Source: Fusobacteriaceae bacterium (lineage in GTDB: Bacteria > Fusobacteriota > Fusobacteriia > Fusobacteriales > Fusobacteriaceae). Taken from it: 32,274 nt of DNA. The notes beneath the pieces were generated by a model. It was not told where the DNA came from. It worked only from the letters and a program-made list of their open reading frames with translations, and made no database searches. The position numbers were made by a program, and so were the translations under genes. The stretch is taken from the NCBI GenBank assembly GCA_017984315.1, contig JAGNZR010000011.1:1-32274 (forward strand), in the 5' to 3' direction. Below are positions 8,125 to 25,156 of the stretch, in pieces (position 1 is the stretch's first letter; each line of letters begins with the position of its first letter).

Positions 8125-8413
8125 AAAGCAGTTAATGAAGGAGAGAAGACAAAATGTACTTCAGTTCTTATTGTCCCTTGTTTTATTATTTTTTTCATTT
8201 AATTATTATTTAAAAGTTGAAACAGAACTTACAGAAAGGATATTAATGGAGAGAAAGGAGATTTCACTTATAGATGAGCAGTTGTTAATCCGAAAAAAAG
8301 GGTTTTACAATGATAATACTTATTTAGGAAGATATGCCCTTGTAAAAAAAGAGTGGAGTGATAAAAGCACAGGAGGGGTAGAATTTAATGAATACAATGA
8401 AAAAAAGCATTAA
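8111..8413 (+). CDS. Small one-span membrane protein of unknown function
   Basis: I do not recognise this 100-residue protein. Its N-terminus is basic (MTKSRKQLMKERR), then comes one hydrophobic segment at about 18-34. A charged stretch of about 25 residues (VETELTERILMERKEISLID) that could form a short coiled coil follows, then YLGRYALVKKEW and a hydrophilic tail. That order (short cytoplasmic end, one span, extracytoplasmic helix) is the topology of the division proteins FtsB and DivIC, but identity is not established. The frame is supported by a good site (AGAGG, nine bases before the ATG) and by overlaps of 14 bases with folC and 26 bases with hprK. That packing is what a real operon member would show. 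Confidence 0.7.
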   Translation: MTKSRKQLMKERRQNVLQFLLSLVLLFFSFNYYLKVETELTERILMERKEISLIDEQLLIRKKGFYNDNTYLGRYALVKKEWSDKSTGGVEFNEYNEKKH

Positions 8414-10331
8414 GAGTGTTTTTCTTTCTGAGATTATTGAGAAATTAAATTTAACACCATTGAATAAAATTGAAGAGGATATTGAGATATTTAATTCTGG
8501 AATTTACAGAGTAGGTTATGAATTTGCTGGTTTTTTTCAATGCGAACTAGATGAATTACATAATTGCATACATATCATTGGGAAGAAAGAAAGTTTATAT
8601 TTAAGGAAACTACCTTTAGACATAAGAGAAGCTACATTAAAAAAATATTTTTCTTATCCTTTCCCTCTTATAATTGCTAGCTGTGATAGTGGTATTTCAG
8701 ATGAATTTTTATACTATGCTAAAAAAAATAGAAAAGTTGTTTTAAAATCTAATTTAAAGACAGTTGAGACAATAAGAGAATTAAAATTTTATCTTAGTAA
8801 AATTTTAGGCGAAGAGTTAATTATGGATGGATATGTCCTTTTAGAAATAGAGGGAGTAGGAGTTTTATTGACAGGGGATAATGATATAAAAGTAGGTGTT
8901 ACAGTAGAGCTTTTAGAAAGAGGGCATAAACTTATAAGTGATAATAATATCCTAGTTAGAAAAGATGATATGAATAATCTGATTGGATTTAATATGTTAA
9001 ATAATGTTTTAGAAAAAGTTGATTTTTTTCTAGAAAGTAACGGAAAAAAAATTGACATTACAAATCATTTTGGAATAAAATCAACGAGGACTAATAAAAG
9101 AATTGATATGATCATCGAGCTAGAGAGGTGGCAAGAGGATAAATTTTATGACCGACTTGGATTAGATGAGTATTATGAGAAAATATTGGATGTTAATACA
9201 CCCAAAATAACCCTTCCAGTAAAAAAAGGAAGAAATTTAGCTGTAATAATTGAATCTGGAGCAATGAATCGTAGATTAAAAAAAATGGGGGTGAACTCTG
9301 CACAATATTTTTGGACAGAGTCTAAAAAATTGATTCAGGAAAATAAAATGAAAAGAGATGATAAATCTAAAGAGGTAACAGGACTTCCATTAAGAAAATT
9401 AATTAATAAATTCGATTTAAAAGTTATAGTAGGGGAAGAATATATTGATGAAAAAAGAATAAAAATATCTAATATACATAAGCCTTCTTTGGCTTTATCA
9501 GGGTATTTTGACATGTACGAAGAGGAAGGGTACGACGGAATACAGATATTTTCAGAGGTAGAATTTAATTTTTTAGAAAATAAAATAAATCAAAATGAAA
9601 GAGAAAGGAATTTAAGAAGATATTTAAGTTATGATTTTCCATTGATAATAGTTACTTCTGAAGTGCAAGTTCCTGAATATTTTATAAAAAAAGTAAAAGA
9701 GTTTAATTTGGTTTTGGCCAGAACAAATTTAAAAAGATCTGCCCAGGTTGTAGCAATTTATAACTCATATTTAGAATATAAATTTGCACCAAGTATCTCT
9801 ATGCATGGAGTTTTTGTAGAACTTCATGGATTTGGAGTTTTGTTAACAGGAAAAAGTGGGATAGGTAAAAGTGAGACTGCTCTTGAACTTATCCATAGAG
9901 GGCATAGACTTGTTGCAGATGATGTAGTTAAATTTACAAAGGACCCAGCAGGAGATATTATAGGAAAGGCTGATAAACTCCCTTATTTTATGGAAGTAAG
10001 AGGATTGGGTATTATTGATGTAAAAACACTTTACGGGCTAGGTGCTGTAAGGATTGATAAAAGACTGGATATAATAATTGAATTGCAAGAGTCACTAACC
10101 AATGAAGAGTATTTAACTGAAATGGAATTTTCAAAAAAAATTGACGTTATTGGAGTCTCTTTTGATAAAGTATTATTATATATCTCTTCCGGAAGAAATG
10201 CCGCAGCAATGGTAGAAATAGCTGTAATGAACTTAATGGCAAAAAAATTAGGTTATGATTCTGAAAAAGCATATAAAGAAGGAATTTCTAGACTGAGTGT
10301 AGAGGACAAGGAAAGATTAGGGATACATTAA
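8388..10331 (+). CDS. hprK: Tandem HPr kinase/phosphorylase with an inactive-looking first copy
   Basis: HPr kinase phosphorylates and dephosphorylates the serine of the PTS protein HPr in response to metabolic state. Normal length is about 310 residues; this one has 647 and contains two full copies. Copy 2 (about 333-640) has everything expected: MHG with H473, P-loop GKSGIGKSE (488-496), HRLVADD (506-512), the signature MEVRGLGIID (535-544) and GRNAAAMVE (602-610). Copy 1 (about 1-315) aligns throughout but reads MDG for MHG, GDNDIKVGV for the P-loop, HKLISDN for HRLVADD, and LESNGKKID for MEVRGLGIID. It should not bind ATP in the usual way. AGGAGGGG lies nine bases before the ATG, and the frame is unbroken. 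No ptsH is in the window. Copy 1 may be regulatory or structural. Confidence 0.92.
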   Translation: MNTMKKSIKSVFLSEIIEKLNLTPLNKIEEDIEIFNSGIYRVGYEFAGFFQCELDELHNCIHIIGKKESLYLRKLPLDIREATLKKYFSYPFPLIIASCDSGISDEFLYYAKKNRKVVLKSNLKTVETIRELKFYLSKILGEELIMDGYVLLEIEGVGVLLTGDNDIKVGVTVELLERGHKLISDNNILVRKDDMNNLIGFNMLNNVLEKVDFFLESNGKKIDITNHFGIKSTRTNKRIDMIIELERWQEDKFYDRLGLDEYYEKILDVNTPKITLPVKKGRNLAVIIESGAMNRRLKKMGVNSAQYFWTESKKLIQENKMKRDDKSKEVTGLPLRKLINKFDLKVIVGEEYIDEKRIKISNIHKPSLALSGYFDMYEEEGYDGIQIFSEVEFNFLENKINQNERERNLRRYLSYDFPLIIVTSEVQVPEYFIKKVKEFNLVLARTNLKRSAQVVAIYNSYLEYKFAPSISMHGVFVELHGFGVLLTGKSGIGKSETALELIHRGHRLVADDVVKFTKDPAGDIIGKADKLPYFMEVRGLGIIDVKTLYGLGAVRIDKRLDIIIELQESLTNEEYLTEMEFSKKIDVIGVSFDKVLLYISSGRNAAAMVEIAVMNLMAKKLGYDSEKAYKEGISRLSVEDKERLGIH

Positions 10332-19700: not shown

Positions 19701-19726
19701 TTAAATGCAAATCGCATTTAAGGAGG
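19701..19726 (+). promoter_or_regulatory. Hairpin overlapping the ribosome binding site of the aminopeptidase gene
   Basis: TTAAATGC (19701-19708) and GCATTTAA (19714-19721) form a perfect eight-pair inverted repeat with loop AAATC. The last two bases of the right arm are the first two of AAGGAGG (19720-19726). It could tune ribosome access, or be a protein operator; nothing in the window shows which. Confidence 0.4.
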
Positions 19727-19731
19727 AAAAG

Positions 19732-21156
19732 ATGTTTAATAAAAAAGTATATGTAGAGAGAAGAGAAGAGTTATGTAAAATAATGAAAAAAGGGATAGGA
19801 GTGTTTTTAGGAAATGGAGATTCACCTAAAAATTATTTAGATAACTGCTATGAATTTTCTCAAGATTCAACATTTTTATACTACTTTGGATTAAATAGAG
19901 CTAACTTAGTTGCAGTAATAGATTTTTCAAATGGAGATACATATATTTCAGGAGTAGATTTTACATTAGATGATATGATTTGGATGGGTGAGCAAAAAAC
20001 AATTTTAGAGTGTTCTAAAGAATATGGAATAAATAAATTTATACAGGATAAAAAACTAAAAGAATTTATTTTAGATAAATCAGAGGGAACAGATGAAGAT
20101 GATGAGGATTACTACCAAGAGATCCTTTATATAGAGCCGTATAGGGCAGATTTAACAATAAAGTTAGCAGAACTTTTAGATATAGAGATTTCAGAGGTTT
20201 TAACATACTCCTCTCTAAAATTAAAAAAAGCTGTTATTCAACAAAGAAATATAAAGTCTCAAGAAGAGATAGTTGAGATAGAAAGAGCTGTAAACATCAC
20301 TAGAGAGATGCACTTAAAAGCTATGGAGATAATAAGACCAGATATTTATGAGTATGAAATAAAGGCAGAAGTGGAAAAAGTTGCTGAAAAATATAATTGT
20401 ACAACATCTTTTCAGACTATAGCAACGATACATGGAGAGACACTTCATAATCATAACTATAATAACCTTTTAAAAGAGGGAGATATACTGCTTTTAGATT
20501 GTGGTGCAAGAACAGAGCTGGGATATTGTGGAGATATGACAACAGTTATTCCTGTATCTGGAAAATTTAGTGAAAAACAAAAAGAGATATATGGAATTTT
20601 AATAGAGATGTTTGACGCTGCTGTATCTAAATTAAAACCTGAAGTTGAATATAGAGAAGCTTATTTAGCTTCATCTAAAGTTTTAATAGAGGGGATGAAA
20701 AGGTTAGGGATGTTAACAGGGCAAACAGAAGAGATATTAGAAAAAGGTGCTCATGCTCTGTTCTTCCCTCATGGACTGGGGCATATGCTGGGAATGGATG
20801 TACATGACTGTGAAAATCTAGGGGAAGAGTATGTTGGTTATGATGAAGGAAAGAGTAGAGATAAAAGGCCTGGACATGGTAGTCTAAGACTGGCTAGAAC
20901 TCTAAAAGTTGGACATGTATTTACAGTTGAACCTGGAATTTATTTTATACCTAGATTTATAGAAAACTGGAAATCAAAAGGATTATTTAAAGAGCATTTA
21001 AATTACTCAGAAATAGAAAAATATAGTGATTTTGGTGGAATGAGATATGAAGGGGATTTTGTAATAACAGAAGACTCTTCAAGAAGACTTGGTGATAGAA
21101 TGCCAAAATTATACACAGAAGTTGAAGAGTTAACAGGGAAAAATAAAAAATGTTAG
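19732..21156 (+). CDS. M24B family metallopeptidase, Xaa-Pro aminopeptidase
   Basis: The 474-residue cytoplasmic enzyme removes an N-terminal residue that precedes proline. An aminopeptidase P N-terminal domain (about 1-160, with FLYYFGLNRANLVAVI) is followed by the pita-bread catalytic domain. Metal ligands are visible as D256 in LDCGAR, D268 in YCGDMTT, H351 in FPHGLGH, E400 in TVEPGIY and E440 in RYEGDFV. The start is ATG 19732, five bases after AAGGAGG; an in-frame ATG at 19705 would lie in the hairpin. The gene is 40 bases after the ABC ATPase, and its end overlaps the malQ start by seven bases. It would complement the Opp transporter and the M19 dipeptidase in peptide use. Confidence 0.9.
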   Translation: MFNKKVYVERREELCKIMKKGIGVFLGNGDSPKNYLDNCYEFSQDSTFLYYFGLNRANLVAVIDFSNGDTYISGVDFTLDDMIWMGEQKTILECSKEYGINKFIQDKKLKEFILDKSEGTDEDDEDYYQEILYIEPYRADLTIKLAELLDIEISEVLTYSSLKLKKAVIQQRNIKSQEEIVEIERAVNITREMHLKAMEIIRPDIYEYEIKAEVEKVAEKYNCTTSFQTIATIHGETLHNHNYNNLLKEGDILLLDCGARTELGYCGDMTTVIPVSGKFSEKQKEIYGILIEMFDAAVSKLKPEVEYREAYLASSKVLIEGMKRLGMLTGQTEEILEKGAHALFFPHGLGHMLGMDVHDCENLGEEYVGYDEGKSRDKRPGHGSLRLARTLKVGHVFTVEPGIYFIPRFIENWKSKGLFKEHLNYSEIEKYSDFGGMRYEGDFVITEDSSRRLGDRMPKLYTEVEELTGKNKKC

Positions 21157-24100
21157 GGCGAAGTAGTGGGGTGCTTATGCATATAAGCTCTCTACCTAAT
21201 GATACAGGGATTGGAGATTTTGGAAAGAGTGCATATGAATTTATTGATTTTTTAAAAGAAGCAGGTCAAAGTTTGTGGCAAATTCTACCTTTAGGTCCAA
21301 CAGGGTATGAGGATTCCCCTTATCAATCTTTTTCATCTTTTGCAGGAAATCCATATTTTATTAATTTAGATTATCTTGTAGAAGAGGGTTTTTTGCACCT
21401 AAATGATTTAAGCAATTTAAAAGAAAAAAATAATGTAGATGTTGTAGATTATGGATTTATTTATAAAGAGAAAATGAATGTTTTAAGAAAAGCATTCAAT
21501 AATTTTTTAATATTTAATGCCAAAGGTGAAATTGAGGTTTTCAAAAAGGAAAACAGTTATTGGTTAGAAGATTATTCTCTTTATATGGCACTTAAAAAAA
21601 ATTTTAAGGATAAAATCTGGCTGCATTGGCCTAAAGAGTATAAAGATAGAGATAAAAATGCCCTTAAAAAAATAAAAGATGAGTTAAAAATAGAGATTGA
21701 GTATCAAAATTTTTTACAATACGAATTTTATAAGCAATGGAAAAATTTAAAGAAGTATGCCAATTTAAAAGGGATAAAAATAATAGGTGATATCCCTATA
21801 TTTGTGGCTTTAGATAGCTCTGATATATGGGCTAATAATGATATGTTTTTACTTGATAAAGATAAATCTCCTTTAAAAGTTTCTGGTTGTCCACCAGATG
21901 CTTTTAGTGAAGAGGGACAGTTATGGGGAAACCCTTTATATGACTGGTCTTTTTTGAAAAAAAACAGCTACTCTTGGTGGATAGAAAGAGTGAGATACTC
22001 CTTTAATCAATATGATATAGTGAGGATAGACCATTTTAGGGGGTTTGAATCTTACTGGGAGATTCCAGCAGATGCTGTTAATGCAAAAAATGGTAAATGG
22101 CAAAAAGGTCCAGGAATTGATTTTTTTAATACCCTAGAAAGAGCTTTAGGGAAAAAAGATATTATTGCAGAAGATCTAGGATTTTTAACACCTGATGTTA
22201 AAATGCTTTTAAGAAAAACTAAATTTCCTGGGATGAAAGTTTTACTTTTTGCTTTTGATTCTGAGCACGAAAGTGATTATCTACCTCATAAATATGATTT
22301 AAATTCAATAGCTTATGTAGGAACTCATGATAATGAAACTGTTGTTGGATGGTATGAAACTGTAAGCTTAAAAGATAAAAAATATTGTGATGAGTACTTA
22401 AAAACTATAAAGGGTGTTACATCTAAAGAGATAAATTGGAAATTTATAGAGGCGGCCTGGAGTAGTAAATCTGTGGTAGCAATAGCTCAAATTCAAGATT
22501 TTTTAGGGCTTAATAATCTAGCTAGGATGAATAAACCTTCAACAGAGAGTGGAAATTGGAGTTGGAGATTGAATAAAAAATTACTAACAAAAGAGTTAGC
22601 CAAGAGAATGAAAAAATTGACTGTAGATAATAGTAGAAAAGTAGATTTTGATGAAAAATATAATGTTAAAAGGAACACATTATTGGAGGGATCAAATATG
22701 AAATTGTCTGTAGAAGATATAAAAAAAGGGATAAATAAAAATTTACTTCAAGATTTTTCAACAAAATTGGAGTATGCAGAAAAACATGAAATATACCAAG
22801 CTTTAACAAAAACTATTTTAGACAAAATTAGTACTAATTGGGTAAATACAGCTGATAAATATCAAGAAAATAAGCAGGTTCACTATTTTTCTTCAGAGTT
22901 CTTAATGGGAAGAGCATTTGGGAATAATCTTATTAATCTTGGAATGATGGATAATGTAAAGCAAGCAATAAATGAACTGGGTATAGACTACAATATTATT
23001 GAAGAGAGTGAAGAGGATGCAGGAACAGGAAATGGTGGACTTGGAAGACTTGCAGCATGTTTTATTGAATCCCTAGCAACACTTAATTTACCAGGAATAG
23101 GTTACAGTATTAGATATAAAAATGGTATTTTTAATCAGAAGATAGAAAATGGTTATCAAGTAGAATATCCAGAAACATGGCTAAAATATGGGGATGCATG
23201 GTCTATAAAAAAATTAGGAGATGAAGTGATTGTAAATTTTAAAGATTTTTCAGTAAGAGCAATCCCTTATGATACACCTATTTTTGGTTATGGAACGAAC
23301 AATGTAAATACACTTAGATTATGGGAAGCAGCTCCAATGGTAGATTTTAATTATTCAGCTTTTAATGCACAAGATTATAACAGTGCTTTATATGAAGCTA
23401 ATAGAGTTGAAGATATCTCAAGAATACTTTATCCAAATGATTCAACTAATGAAGGGAAGAAACTTAGATTAAGACAGCAGTATTTCTTTGTTTCAGCTTC
23501 TTTGCAAGATATTGTAAAAAAATATAAAAGAGTACATGGAGATGATTTTAGCAAGTTTTCTAACTTGACAGTGATACAACTAAATGACACTCATCCAACA
23601 GTGGCAATTCCTGAGCTTATGAGAATATTGTGTGAGCAAGAGAGAATGTCATGGTATGAAGCTTGGGCAGTTGTTACTAAGACTTTTGCTTATACAAATC
23701 ATACAATTTTAGCTGAGGCATTAGAGAAATGGTGGATAGGTCTTTATGAGGAGATTTTACCTAATATTTATAATATAATCAGAAGAATAAATGAACAATT
23801 ATTGGGAGAGCTACGTACTATTTATCCAGACGACGGGGCTAAACACCATAGAATGGCTATAATACAAGGAGATTTAATTCATATGGCATGGCTTGCAATA
23901 TATGGAAGCTCATATGTAAATGGAGTTGCAGCCCTTCATACAGAGCTTTTAAAACATGAAGAGTTAAAAGAGTGGTATGAGTTATATCCAGAAAAATTTC
24001 AAAATAAAACAAACGGAATTACTCAGAGAAGATGGTTACTGCTTTCAAATCCAGAGTTATCAAAATTTATTACCTCTTTAATTGGTGATACATGGATAAA

Positions 24101-25079
24101 AGATCTTTCTCAACTTAAAAGATTAGAAGAGTATGCAAATGATAAAGATGTGTTAAATAAATTTATTGAAATAAAATCTGGTAAAAAATATGAACTTGCA
24201 AATTATTTAGAAAAAGCTCAAGGAGAAGTAATTAATACCAGTTCAATATTTGATGTTCAAGTTAAGAGATTGCATGAATATAAAAGACAGCTACTGAATA
24301 TATTCCATGTAATTGATCTTTATAATACATTGAAGCATGATCCTAATATTGATATGGCTCCTGTAACATATATTTTTGGTTCTAAAGCAGCACCTGGATA
24401 TAGAAGAGCTAAAGGGATAATTAAATTAATCAATGAAGTTGCAAAAAAAATAAATGAGGATCCTGTAATTAGTAAAAAAATTAAAGTTGTCTTTGTGGAA
24501 AATTATAGAGTCTCTTTAGCTCATCTGATTTTCCCAGCAGCAGATATTTCAGAGCAGATATCTACAGCAGGAAAAGAAGCTTCTGGAACTGGAAATATGA
24601 AGTTTATGCTAAATGGTGGATTGACATTGGGGACTTTAGATGGTGCTAATATAGAGATTGTTGAAGAAGCAGGAGCAGAGAATAATTTTATATTTGGTCT
24701 TACAGTAGAAGAGATAAATGAGATTAAAAAAATTGGTTATAACCCGTTAAACTATTATAATTCAGTTTCTGGGCTTAAAGCAGTTATAGACTCTTTAGTT
24801 GATGGAACATTTGATGATAATGGGAAAGGGTATTTTAGAGATATATACAACTCACTCCTTTATGGAACTGATTGGCATCAACCAGATGAATATTTTGTTT
24901 TAAAAGATTTTGAAGCCTATAGAAATATTCAAAAAATGGCTAATAATGCATATAAAGACAGAGAAGGATGGGCTAAAAAAGCTTGGTTCAATATTGCCAA
25001 TGCTGGAAAATTTTCATCAGATAGAACTATAGCACAGTATGCAAAAGAGATTTGGGATATTAAATCTGTAAAAATTTAA
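21150..25079 (+). CDS. malQ-glgP: Fused 4-alpha-glucanotransferase and glycogen/maltodextrin phosphorylase
   Basis: One unbroken frame of 1309 codons encodes two enzymes that are normally separate. Residues 1 to about 490 are MalQ (GH77), which moves glucan chains between maltodextrins: SPYQSFSSFAGNPYFI, GDIPIFVA, nucleophile D294 in RIDHFRGFE, acid/base E341 in IIAEDLGF, D394 in GTHDNE. Residues 517-1309 are GlgP (GT35), which releases glucose-1-phosphate: EDAGTGNGGLGRLAACF, IQLNDTHPT, and the pyridoxal-phosphate lysine at 1151 in GTGNMKF. The joint, about 491-516, is polar and shows no domain. The GlgP part begins at a methionine with its own ribosome binding site (22685-22690). Both halves have full family length. 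A lost stop codon or a sequencing error could also explain the joined frame. The start ATG overlaps the aminopeptidase stop. Confidence 0.9.
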   Translation: MLGRSSGVLMHISSLPNDTGIGDFGKSAYEFIDFLKEAGQSLWQILPLGPTGYEDSPYQSFSSFAGNPYFINLDYLVEEGFLHLNDLSNLKEKNNVDVVDYGFIYKEKMNVLRKAFNNFLIFNAKGEIEVFKKENSYWLEDYSLYMALKKNFKDKIWLHWPKEYKDRDKNALKKIKDELKIEIEYQNFLQYEFYKQWKNLKKYANLKGIKIIGDIPIFVALDSSDIWANNDMFLLDKDKSPLKVSGCPPDAFSEEGQLWGNPLYDWSFLKKNSYSWWIERVRYSFNQYDIVRIDHFRGFESYWEIPADAVNAKNGKWQKGPGIDFFNTLERALGKKDIIAEDLGFLTPDVKMLLRKTKFPGMKVLLFAFDSEHESDYLPHKYDLNSIAYVGTHDNETVVGWYETVSLKDKKYCDEYLKTIKGVTSKEINWKFIEAAWSSKSVVAIAQIQDFLGLNNLARMNKPSTESGNWSWRLNKKLLTKELAKRMKKLTVDNSRKVDFDEKYNVKRNTLLEGSNMKLSVEDIKKGINKNLLQDFSTKLEYAEKHEIYQALTKTILDKISTNWVNTADKYQENKQVHYFSSEFLMGRAFGNNLINLGMMDNVKQAINELGIDYNIIEESEEDAGTGNGGLGRLAACFIESLATLNLPGIGYSIRYKNGIFNQKIENGYQVEYPETWLKYGDAWSIKKLGDEVIVNFKDFSVRAIPYDTPIFGYGTNNVNTLRLWEAAPMVDFNYSAFNAQDYNSALYEANRVEDISRILYPNDSTNEGKKLRLRQQYFFVSASLQDIVKKYKRVHGDDFSKFSNLTVIQLNDTHPTVAIPELMRILCEQERMSWYEAWAVVTKTFAYTNHTILAEALEKWWIGLYEEILPNIYNIIRRINEQLLGELRTIYPDDGAKHHRMAIIQGDLIHMAWLAIYGSSYVNGVAALHTELLKHEELKEWYELYPEKFQNKTNGITQRRWLLLSNPELSKFITSLIGDTWIKDLSQLKRLEEYANDKDVLNKFIEIKSGKKYELANYLEKAQGEVINTSSIFDVQVKRLHEYKRQLLNIFHVIDLYNTLKHDPNIDMAPVTYIFGSKAAPGYRRAKGIIKLINEVAKKINEDPVISKKIKVVFVENYRVSLAHLIFPAADISEQISTAGKEASGTGNMKFMLNGGLTLGTLDGANIEIVEEAGAENNFIFGLTVEEINEIKKIGYNPLNYYNSVSGLKAVIDSLVDGTFDDNGKGYFRDIYNSLLYGTDWHQPDEYFVLKDFEAYRNIQKMANNAYKDREGWAKKAWFNIANAGKFSSDRTIAQYAKEIWDIKSVKI
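22685..22700 (+). promoter_or_regulatory. Internal ribosome binding site and ATG for glgP inside the fused frame
   Basis: GGAGGG (22685-22690) is followed after seven bases by ATG (22698-22700), in frame with the upstream malQ part. Starting here gives a 793-residue GlgP, the normal length for the family. It looks like the original glgP start, still intact, so free GlgP may be made as well as the fusion. Confidence 0.7.
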
Positions 25080-25099: not shown

Positions 25100-25156
25100 G
25101 AGGCTAACTCCTAAAAAATAGATTTTTTTCTATCTTTTAGGTCAGCCTCATTTTTT
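25100..25156. terminator. Bidirectional terminator between malQ-glgP and the EamA gene
   Basis: A long imperfect stem: GAGGCT (25100-25105) with AGCCTC (25144-25149), CCTAAAA with TTTTAGG, and ATAGA with TCTAT around a T-rich loop. T-run 25151-25156 follows on the plus strand, and an A-run (25093-25099) precedes it for the minus strand. Confidence 0.85.

What the first reader, a model, noticed from the sequence alone, without database searches (positions are those of the whole stretch)
21150..25079. MalQ and GlgP joined in one frame
A single 1309-codon frame contains a full-length 4-alpha-glucanotransferase and a full-length alpha-glucan phosphorylase with every catalytic residue I checked. 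MalQ makes the longer maltodextrins that GlgP needs, so joining them could pass substrate between the active sites. In the bacteria I know best they are separate genes. The link (about residues 491-516) is short and polar and looks like former non-coding sequence. I cannot tell whether this fusion is recorded elsewhere.
Basis: partly seen in the sequence, partly recalled or inferred. Interest (0 to 1): 0.72.

Follow-up and report, generated by a model that had tools for sequence, protein, structure and literature searches.

The report
MalQ-GlgP joined by stop-codon loss
In one Fusobacterium-family genome the genes for two starch- and glycogen-breakdown enzymes, normally neighbours in an operon, have lost the stop between them and read as one 1309-residue protein, but the second gene keeps its own strong ribosome-binding site, so it is probably also made alone; similar joins turn up in a few other bacteria.

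Summary
21150-25079 is one open frame with a complete GH77 4-alpha-glucanotransferase (MalQ) and a complete GT35 glycogen phosphorylase (GlgP), key catalytic residues present. The window is from a 78%-complete, 79-contig assembly related to Fusobacteriaceae. Of 61 family genomes searched, this is the only one found joined. In the two nearest relatives a TrmB regulator gene lies between malQ and glgP; many other relatives have the genes adjacent, mostly out of frame and always with a stop. Here codon 497 (AAA) stands where relatives have the malQ stop. The 20-codon linker (497-516) has no detectable homology and is predicted disordered. It contains GGAGG 8 nt before the ATG where GlgP starts in relatives, the best ribosome-binding site of 48 in-frame start codons. 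I therefore expect two products, a 151 kDa fusion and free 91 kDa GlgP, rather than an obligate fusion. Similar single-frame MalQ-GlgP genes occur in five other genomes (Clostridia); two, 90% identical, lack an internal start and are under purifying selection, so the architecture is real and recurrent though rare. MalQ-GlgP coupling is documented (S. mutans operon; plant Pho1-Dpe1 complex). Channelling is untested, and a one-base assembly error is not excluded.

The parts
21150..25079 (+). Single open frame MalQ-linker-GlgP, 1309 aa, predicted 151 kDa
21150..22637 (+). MalQ part (residues 1-496), GH77 amylomaltase; catalytic D294, E341, D394
   Evidence: Pfam/NCBIfam, alignment to 1cwy, residues
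22638..22640 (+). Codon 497 AAA, where malQ of relatives ends (..NR then TAA/TAG); the AAAA run around it would give a stop (AGA AAG TAG) if one A shorter
   Evidence: junction comparison, sequence read directly
22638..22697 (+). Linker, residues 497-516 (KVDFDEKYNVKRNTLLEGSN); model confidence pLDDT below 50 over residues 491-516
22685..22690 (+). Shine-Dalgarno GGAGGG, GGAGG 8 nt before ATG 22698; best of 48 in-frame start codons, 5th of 25 starts compared in the window
22698..25079 (+). GlgP part with its ancestral internal ATG (residues 517-1309; 793 aa, 91 kDa if started internally); PLP lysine K1151
   Evidence: start aligns with GlgP starts of relatives
19705..21156 (+). Upstream Xaa-Pro aminopeptidase (PepP-like); its stop overlaps the malQ start by 7 nt, so probably co-translated

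Best explanation
An ancestral malQ...glgP operon in a Fusobacteriaceae-related bacterium lost the malQ stop codon and, by comparison with its two closest relatives, an intervening TrmB-family regulator gene. Ribosomes that finish malQ now run through 20 codons of former leader into glgP and make a bifunctional MalQ-GlgP chain. Because the glgP Shine-Dalgarno and ATG remain inside the linker, a second population of ribosomes should start there and make free GlgP. Function: MalQ disproportionates maltose and short maltodextrins (releasing glucose) to chains long enough for GlgP, which phosphorolyses them to glucose-1-phosphate. Shown: intact joined frame, intact domains, separate genes in relatives, retained internal start signal. 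Inferred: the trmB-loss history, the two-product output and cooperation of the two domains. Not shown: any kinetic gain from fusion.
For: Frame and domains. Only joined case among 61 family genomes. Relatives' malQ ends at the matching codon and glgP starts at the residue matching M517, with SD, mostly in another frame. Nearest relatives G002 and G005 carry malQ-trmB-glgP; GlgP tree groups G005+(window, G002) 93/89, window+G002 100/100; trmB not found in the window's genome. Internal SD is the best of 48 in-frame starts. Linker pLDDT below 50. No other glgP in the held assembly, although glgB-glgC-glgD-glgA are present elsewhere without glgP. S. mutans: MalQ acts on maltose/maltotriose, GlgP only on longer chains, and GlgP gains activity on maltose when MalQ is added (PMC3737437).
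Against: No close relative (same species) is available to show that the junction is fixed; the assembly is 78% complete in 79 contigs, so a second glgP or trmB could be missing from it. The trmB-loss history rests on two relatives with some contamination (6% and 8%), and the linker shows no detectable trmB remnant. Elongating ribosomes may reduce internal initiation.
Confidence: 0.68

Rival explanations
1. Assembly or base-calling artefact: the real organism has a malQ stop and two separate genes, and one wrong base (for example one A too many in the AAAA run at 22637-22640) joins them.
For: Draft, 79-contig assembly. One base less in the A-run gives AGA AAG TAG, a stop within two codons of the position where relatives have theirs. 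None of the 60 other family genomes is joined.
Against: The run is only four bases; the other 20 or so genes of the window look intact; the linker stays open for 20 codons after that point and enters glgP in phase, which a single error does not guarantee; similar joins exist elsewhere.
Confidence: 0.13
2. Selected obligate bifunctional enzyme: fusion was favoured because it holds both active sites together and channels maltodextrins; the internal Shine-Dalgarno is a leftover that is not used.
For: Two 90%-identical Eubacterium MAG genes (L039, L040) are joined without internal start signals, with 417 synonymous versus 132 nonsynonymous codon differences and no indels, and an Epulopiscium MAG gene is joined too. 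Plant Pho1 and Dpe1 form a complex with changed kinetics (PMC5417683); PDB entries 9lpw, 9lpz and 9m80 hold both chains.
Against: In the window the GGAGG and ATG are intact and well spaced; the linker shows no conservation with any relative; a single lineage; no structural or kinetic data.
Confidence: 0.14
3. Recent decay: loss of trmB and of the malQ stop is the start of degeneration of the operon, and the joined product is tolerated or partly inactive.
For: Window GlgP has a longer branch than its sister G002 (0.35 against 0.23); the regulator is gone; G001, same genus and 100% complete, lacks both genes.
Against: All catalytic motifs and the full 1309-codon frame are intact; glgBCDA are present in the genome.
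Confidence: 0.05

Closest known systems
malQ-glgP (malM-malP) operons of Firmicutes, e.g. Streptococcus mutans (PMC3737437)
   Same: Same two enzymes in the same order, co-transcribed; S. mutans genes overlap by 29 nt; MalQ feeds GlgP
   Different: Separate proteins with separate stops; window genes are one frame with an open linker
Single-frame MalQ-GlgP genes found here in Clostridia genomes (L035 Epulopiscium MAG; L039/L040 Eubacterium MAGs; L156; L162)
   Same: GH77 then GT35 in one chain of roughly 1250-1330 aa
   Different: GlgP halves roughly 40-50% identical; L035, L039 and L040 lack an internal start; L156 keeps one like the window
Plant plastid Pho1-Dpe1 complex (PMC5417683; PDB 9lpw, 9lpz, 9m80)
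   Same: GT35 phosphorylase and GH77 disproportionating enzyme physically associated; the complex uses G3/G4 that Pho1 alone does not
   Different: Non-covalent complex of two proteins
Other MalQ fusions: GlgB-MalQ in Neisseria (PMC11046441), GlgX/MalQ (NCBIfam NF011083)
   Same: GH77 fused to another glucan enzyme
   Different: Partner is a GH13 enzyme, not a phosphorylase

Membership tests
GH77 4-alpha-glucanotransferase (MalQ, PRK14508 group) | Full-length domain above curated cut-off | tested here: met
   PF02446 600 bits; NF011080 683.6 against cut-off 477
GH77 4-alpha-glucanotransferase (MalQ, PRK14508 group) | Catalytic Asp/Glu/Asp triad | tested here: met
   D294, E341, D394 align with 1cwy motifs RIDHFRG, AEDLG, GTHDN
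GH77 4-alpha-glucanotransferase (MalQ, PRK14508 group) | Disproportionating activity | not testable with these tools
   needs an assay
GT35 glycogen/maltodextrin phosphorylase (TIGR02093) | Full-length domain above curated cut-off | tested here: met
   1096.5 bits against 552.9
GT35 glycogen/maltodextrin phosphorylase (TIGR02093) | PLP-binding lysine in GTGNMKFMLNG | tested here: met
   K1151
GT35 glycogen/maltodextrin phosphorylase (TIGR02093) | Homodimer and phosphorolysis activity | not testable with these tools
   needs expression
Fixed bifunctional MalQ-GlgP fusion | One frame conserved in close relatives | tested here: not met
   0 of 60 other family genomes joined
Fixed bifunctional MalQ-GlgP fusion | No independent start for the second domain | tested here: not met
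   GGAGG plus ATG at 22685-22700
Fixed bifunctional MalQ-GlgP fusion | Single polypeptide observed in cells | not testable with these tools
   needs Western blot or mass spectrometry

The most novel reading that the evidence does not exclude
The gene makes two forms from one message, a MalQ-GlgP fusion and free GlgP, which co-assemble into mixed GlgP dimers carrying zero, one or two MalQ domains, so that the joined frame sets the MalQ:GlgP ratio and tethers maltodextrin supply to the phosphorylase, a bacterial covalent counterpart of the plant Pho1-Dpe1 complex.
Probability: 0.25. Interest if true: 0.5.

Novelty: new variant of a known kind. Interest (0 to 1): 0.3.

Why it matters
If real, it is a natural experiment caught early: two consecutive enzymes joined by stop loss while the second gene's start signal is still in place, with more complete joins of the same pair in Clostridia. 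It lets one ask whether tethering GH77 to GT35 changes flux, as reported for the plant Pho1-Dpe1 complex. Otherwise it is ordinary maltodextrin and glycogen catabolism.

Tried and rejected
Linker as trmB remnant: no alignment of linker DNA or peptide to trmB better than shuffles. Opposite strand of the locus: the complementary frame is full of stops. Literature searches for the fusion ('GH77-GT35', 'malQ-glgP', fusion terms) found no report of a bacterial MalQ-GlgP fusion in the held open-access library; the gene fusion of the Trichomonas paper is unrelated. Long open frames around glgP in G079, G067 and G012 proved not to be malQ fusions (glgC-glgA-glgP clusters, or a frame merely open upstream). 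Several long-frame candidates in the G086 family (G189, G102, G181, G122, G150, G171) had separate malQ and glgP frames.

Full report
What is there. The frame 21150-25079 is real in the sequence: ATG to TAA, 1309 codons, no internal stop. It contains near full-profile matches to GH77 4-alpha-glucanotransferase (residues 10-478) and to GT35 phosphorylase (608-1304; TIGR02093 from 521). Closest solved relatives are an amylomaltase (1cwy) and a glycogen phosphorylase (2c4m); catalytic D294, E341, D394 and PLP lysine K1151 are kept. The opposite strand is full of stops in the complementary frame.

Source. The assembly is 1.47 Mb in 79 contigs, 78% complete. Named relatives point to Fusobacteriaceae: a Fusobacterium vincentii record matches 96% of the query at 59% and Cetobacterium GlgP matches at 64-65%, and the window carries a tandem HPr kinase gene of the kind recorded from Fusobacterium nucleatum (PMC2405797). 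The species name was not available.

Relatives. In 61 genomes of the family, the window's is the only one where malQ and glgP form one open frame. In many relatives malQ and glgP are neighbours with 11-90 nt between the malQ stop and glgP; malQ typically ends ..NR-stop, usually in a different frame from glgP, and glgP has a Shine-Dalgarno and its ATG at the residue matching M517. In some genomes (such as G024, G013, G081, G009) the two are in the same frame but separated by one or more stops. In the nearest relatives G002 (same genus) and G005, a gene for a TrmB-type sugar regulator lies between malQ and glgP. A GlgP tree places the window with G002 (100/100) and these with G005 (93/89), so the simplest history is presence of trmB in their ancestor and loss in the window's lineage; trmB is not found in the window's genome. 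The flanks also differ: pepP upstream here, a PTS transporter in G002. The same-genus genome G001, 100% complete, lacks both enzymes.

The junction. After ..NSR496 the relatives have a stop; the window has AAA. The next 20 codons (497-516) match trmB no better than shuffles and are predicted disordered (pLDDT below 50 over residues 491-516; the alignment gives little depth there). Nineteen codons would stay open by chance about 21% of the time, so the open linker is not in itself evidence of selection. The last codons hold GGAGGG, with GGAGG 8 nt before ATG 22698; its anti-SD duplex energy (-10.2 kcal/mol) is the best of 48 in-frame start codons and ranks fifth among the 25 starts compared in the window, far better than the malQ start itself (-4.6).

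Elsewhere. A scan of named genomes and genome surveys found other single-frame MalQ-GlgP genes: L035 (Epulopiscium MAG), L039 and L040 (Eubacterium MAGs), L156 (G105) and L162 (G146). In L035, L039 and L040 no start codon with a good Shine-Dalgarno remains near the GlgP start; L156 keeps one like the window; L162 has a long acidic linker with several possible starts. L039 and L040 (90% identical) differ by 417 synonymous and 132 nonsynonymous codons without indels over the aligned frame, which indicates purifying selection on the joined frame. The join is rare: 3 of 150 genomes drawn from the family of G086, and in a 398-genome phylum sample only the centre genome itself among the matches listed (the list is cut, so this is a lower bound).

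Function. The genome has glgB-glgC-glgD-glgA elsewhere, with no glgP next to them, and no other GlgP in the held assembly, so the joined gene may supply the only phosphorylase (assembly incomplete). S. mutans MalQ and GlgP, separate proteins of one operon, cooperate in vitro: GlgP alone does not use maltose or maltotriose but does so with MalQ (PMC3737437). In plants the homologous pair Pho1 and Dpe1 forms a complex with changed substrate range (PMC5417683), and PDB entries 9lpw, 9lpz and 9m80 hold both chains. So cooperation is established for the pair; a benefit of the covalent join is not.

Verdict. Very probably a real stop-loss join of an operonic enzyme pair, with a retained internal start; modestly interesting, not a new kind of system. 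The main doubt is a single-base assembly error in an incomplete genome.

Noticed in passing
window 8388-10331 (+): 647-aa frame with two HPr kinase/phosphorylase copies in tandem; the N-terminal copy has a degenerate P-loop (LLTGDNDIKVG) against LLTGKSGIGKSE in the second. Found in 21 of 31 relatives searched and already recorded for Fusobacterium nucleatum (PMC2405797).
   Followed up: partly
L113:3530-4327 (G002) and L114:5418-6224 (G005): TrmB-type regulator between malQ and glgP in the nearest relatives; TrmB-like genes also lie upstream of glgP in several other genomes. Candidate regulator of maltodextrin use in this group.
   Followed up: partly
L203:7518-13225 (G000:C7): glgB-glgC-glgD-glgA cluster of the window's genome without the glgP that follows glgA in relatives such as G079.
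   Followed up: partly
L162:1257-5252 (G146): MalQ-GlgP single frame with a roughly 70-residue acidic linker, unlike the short linkers of the other joined genes.
   Followed up: no
window 25100-25155: Inverted repeat with T-runs just after the GlgP stop, looks like a two-way terminator between the convergent glgP and EamA-type transporter genes; read by eye only.
   Followed up: no
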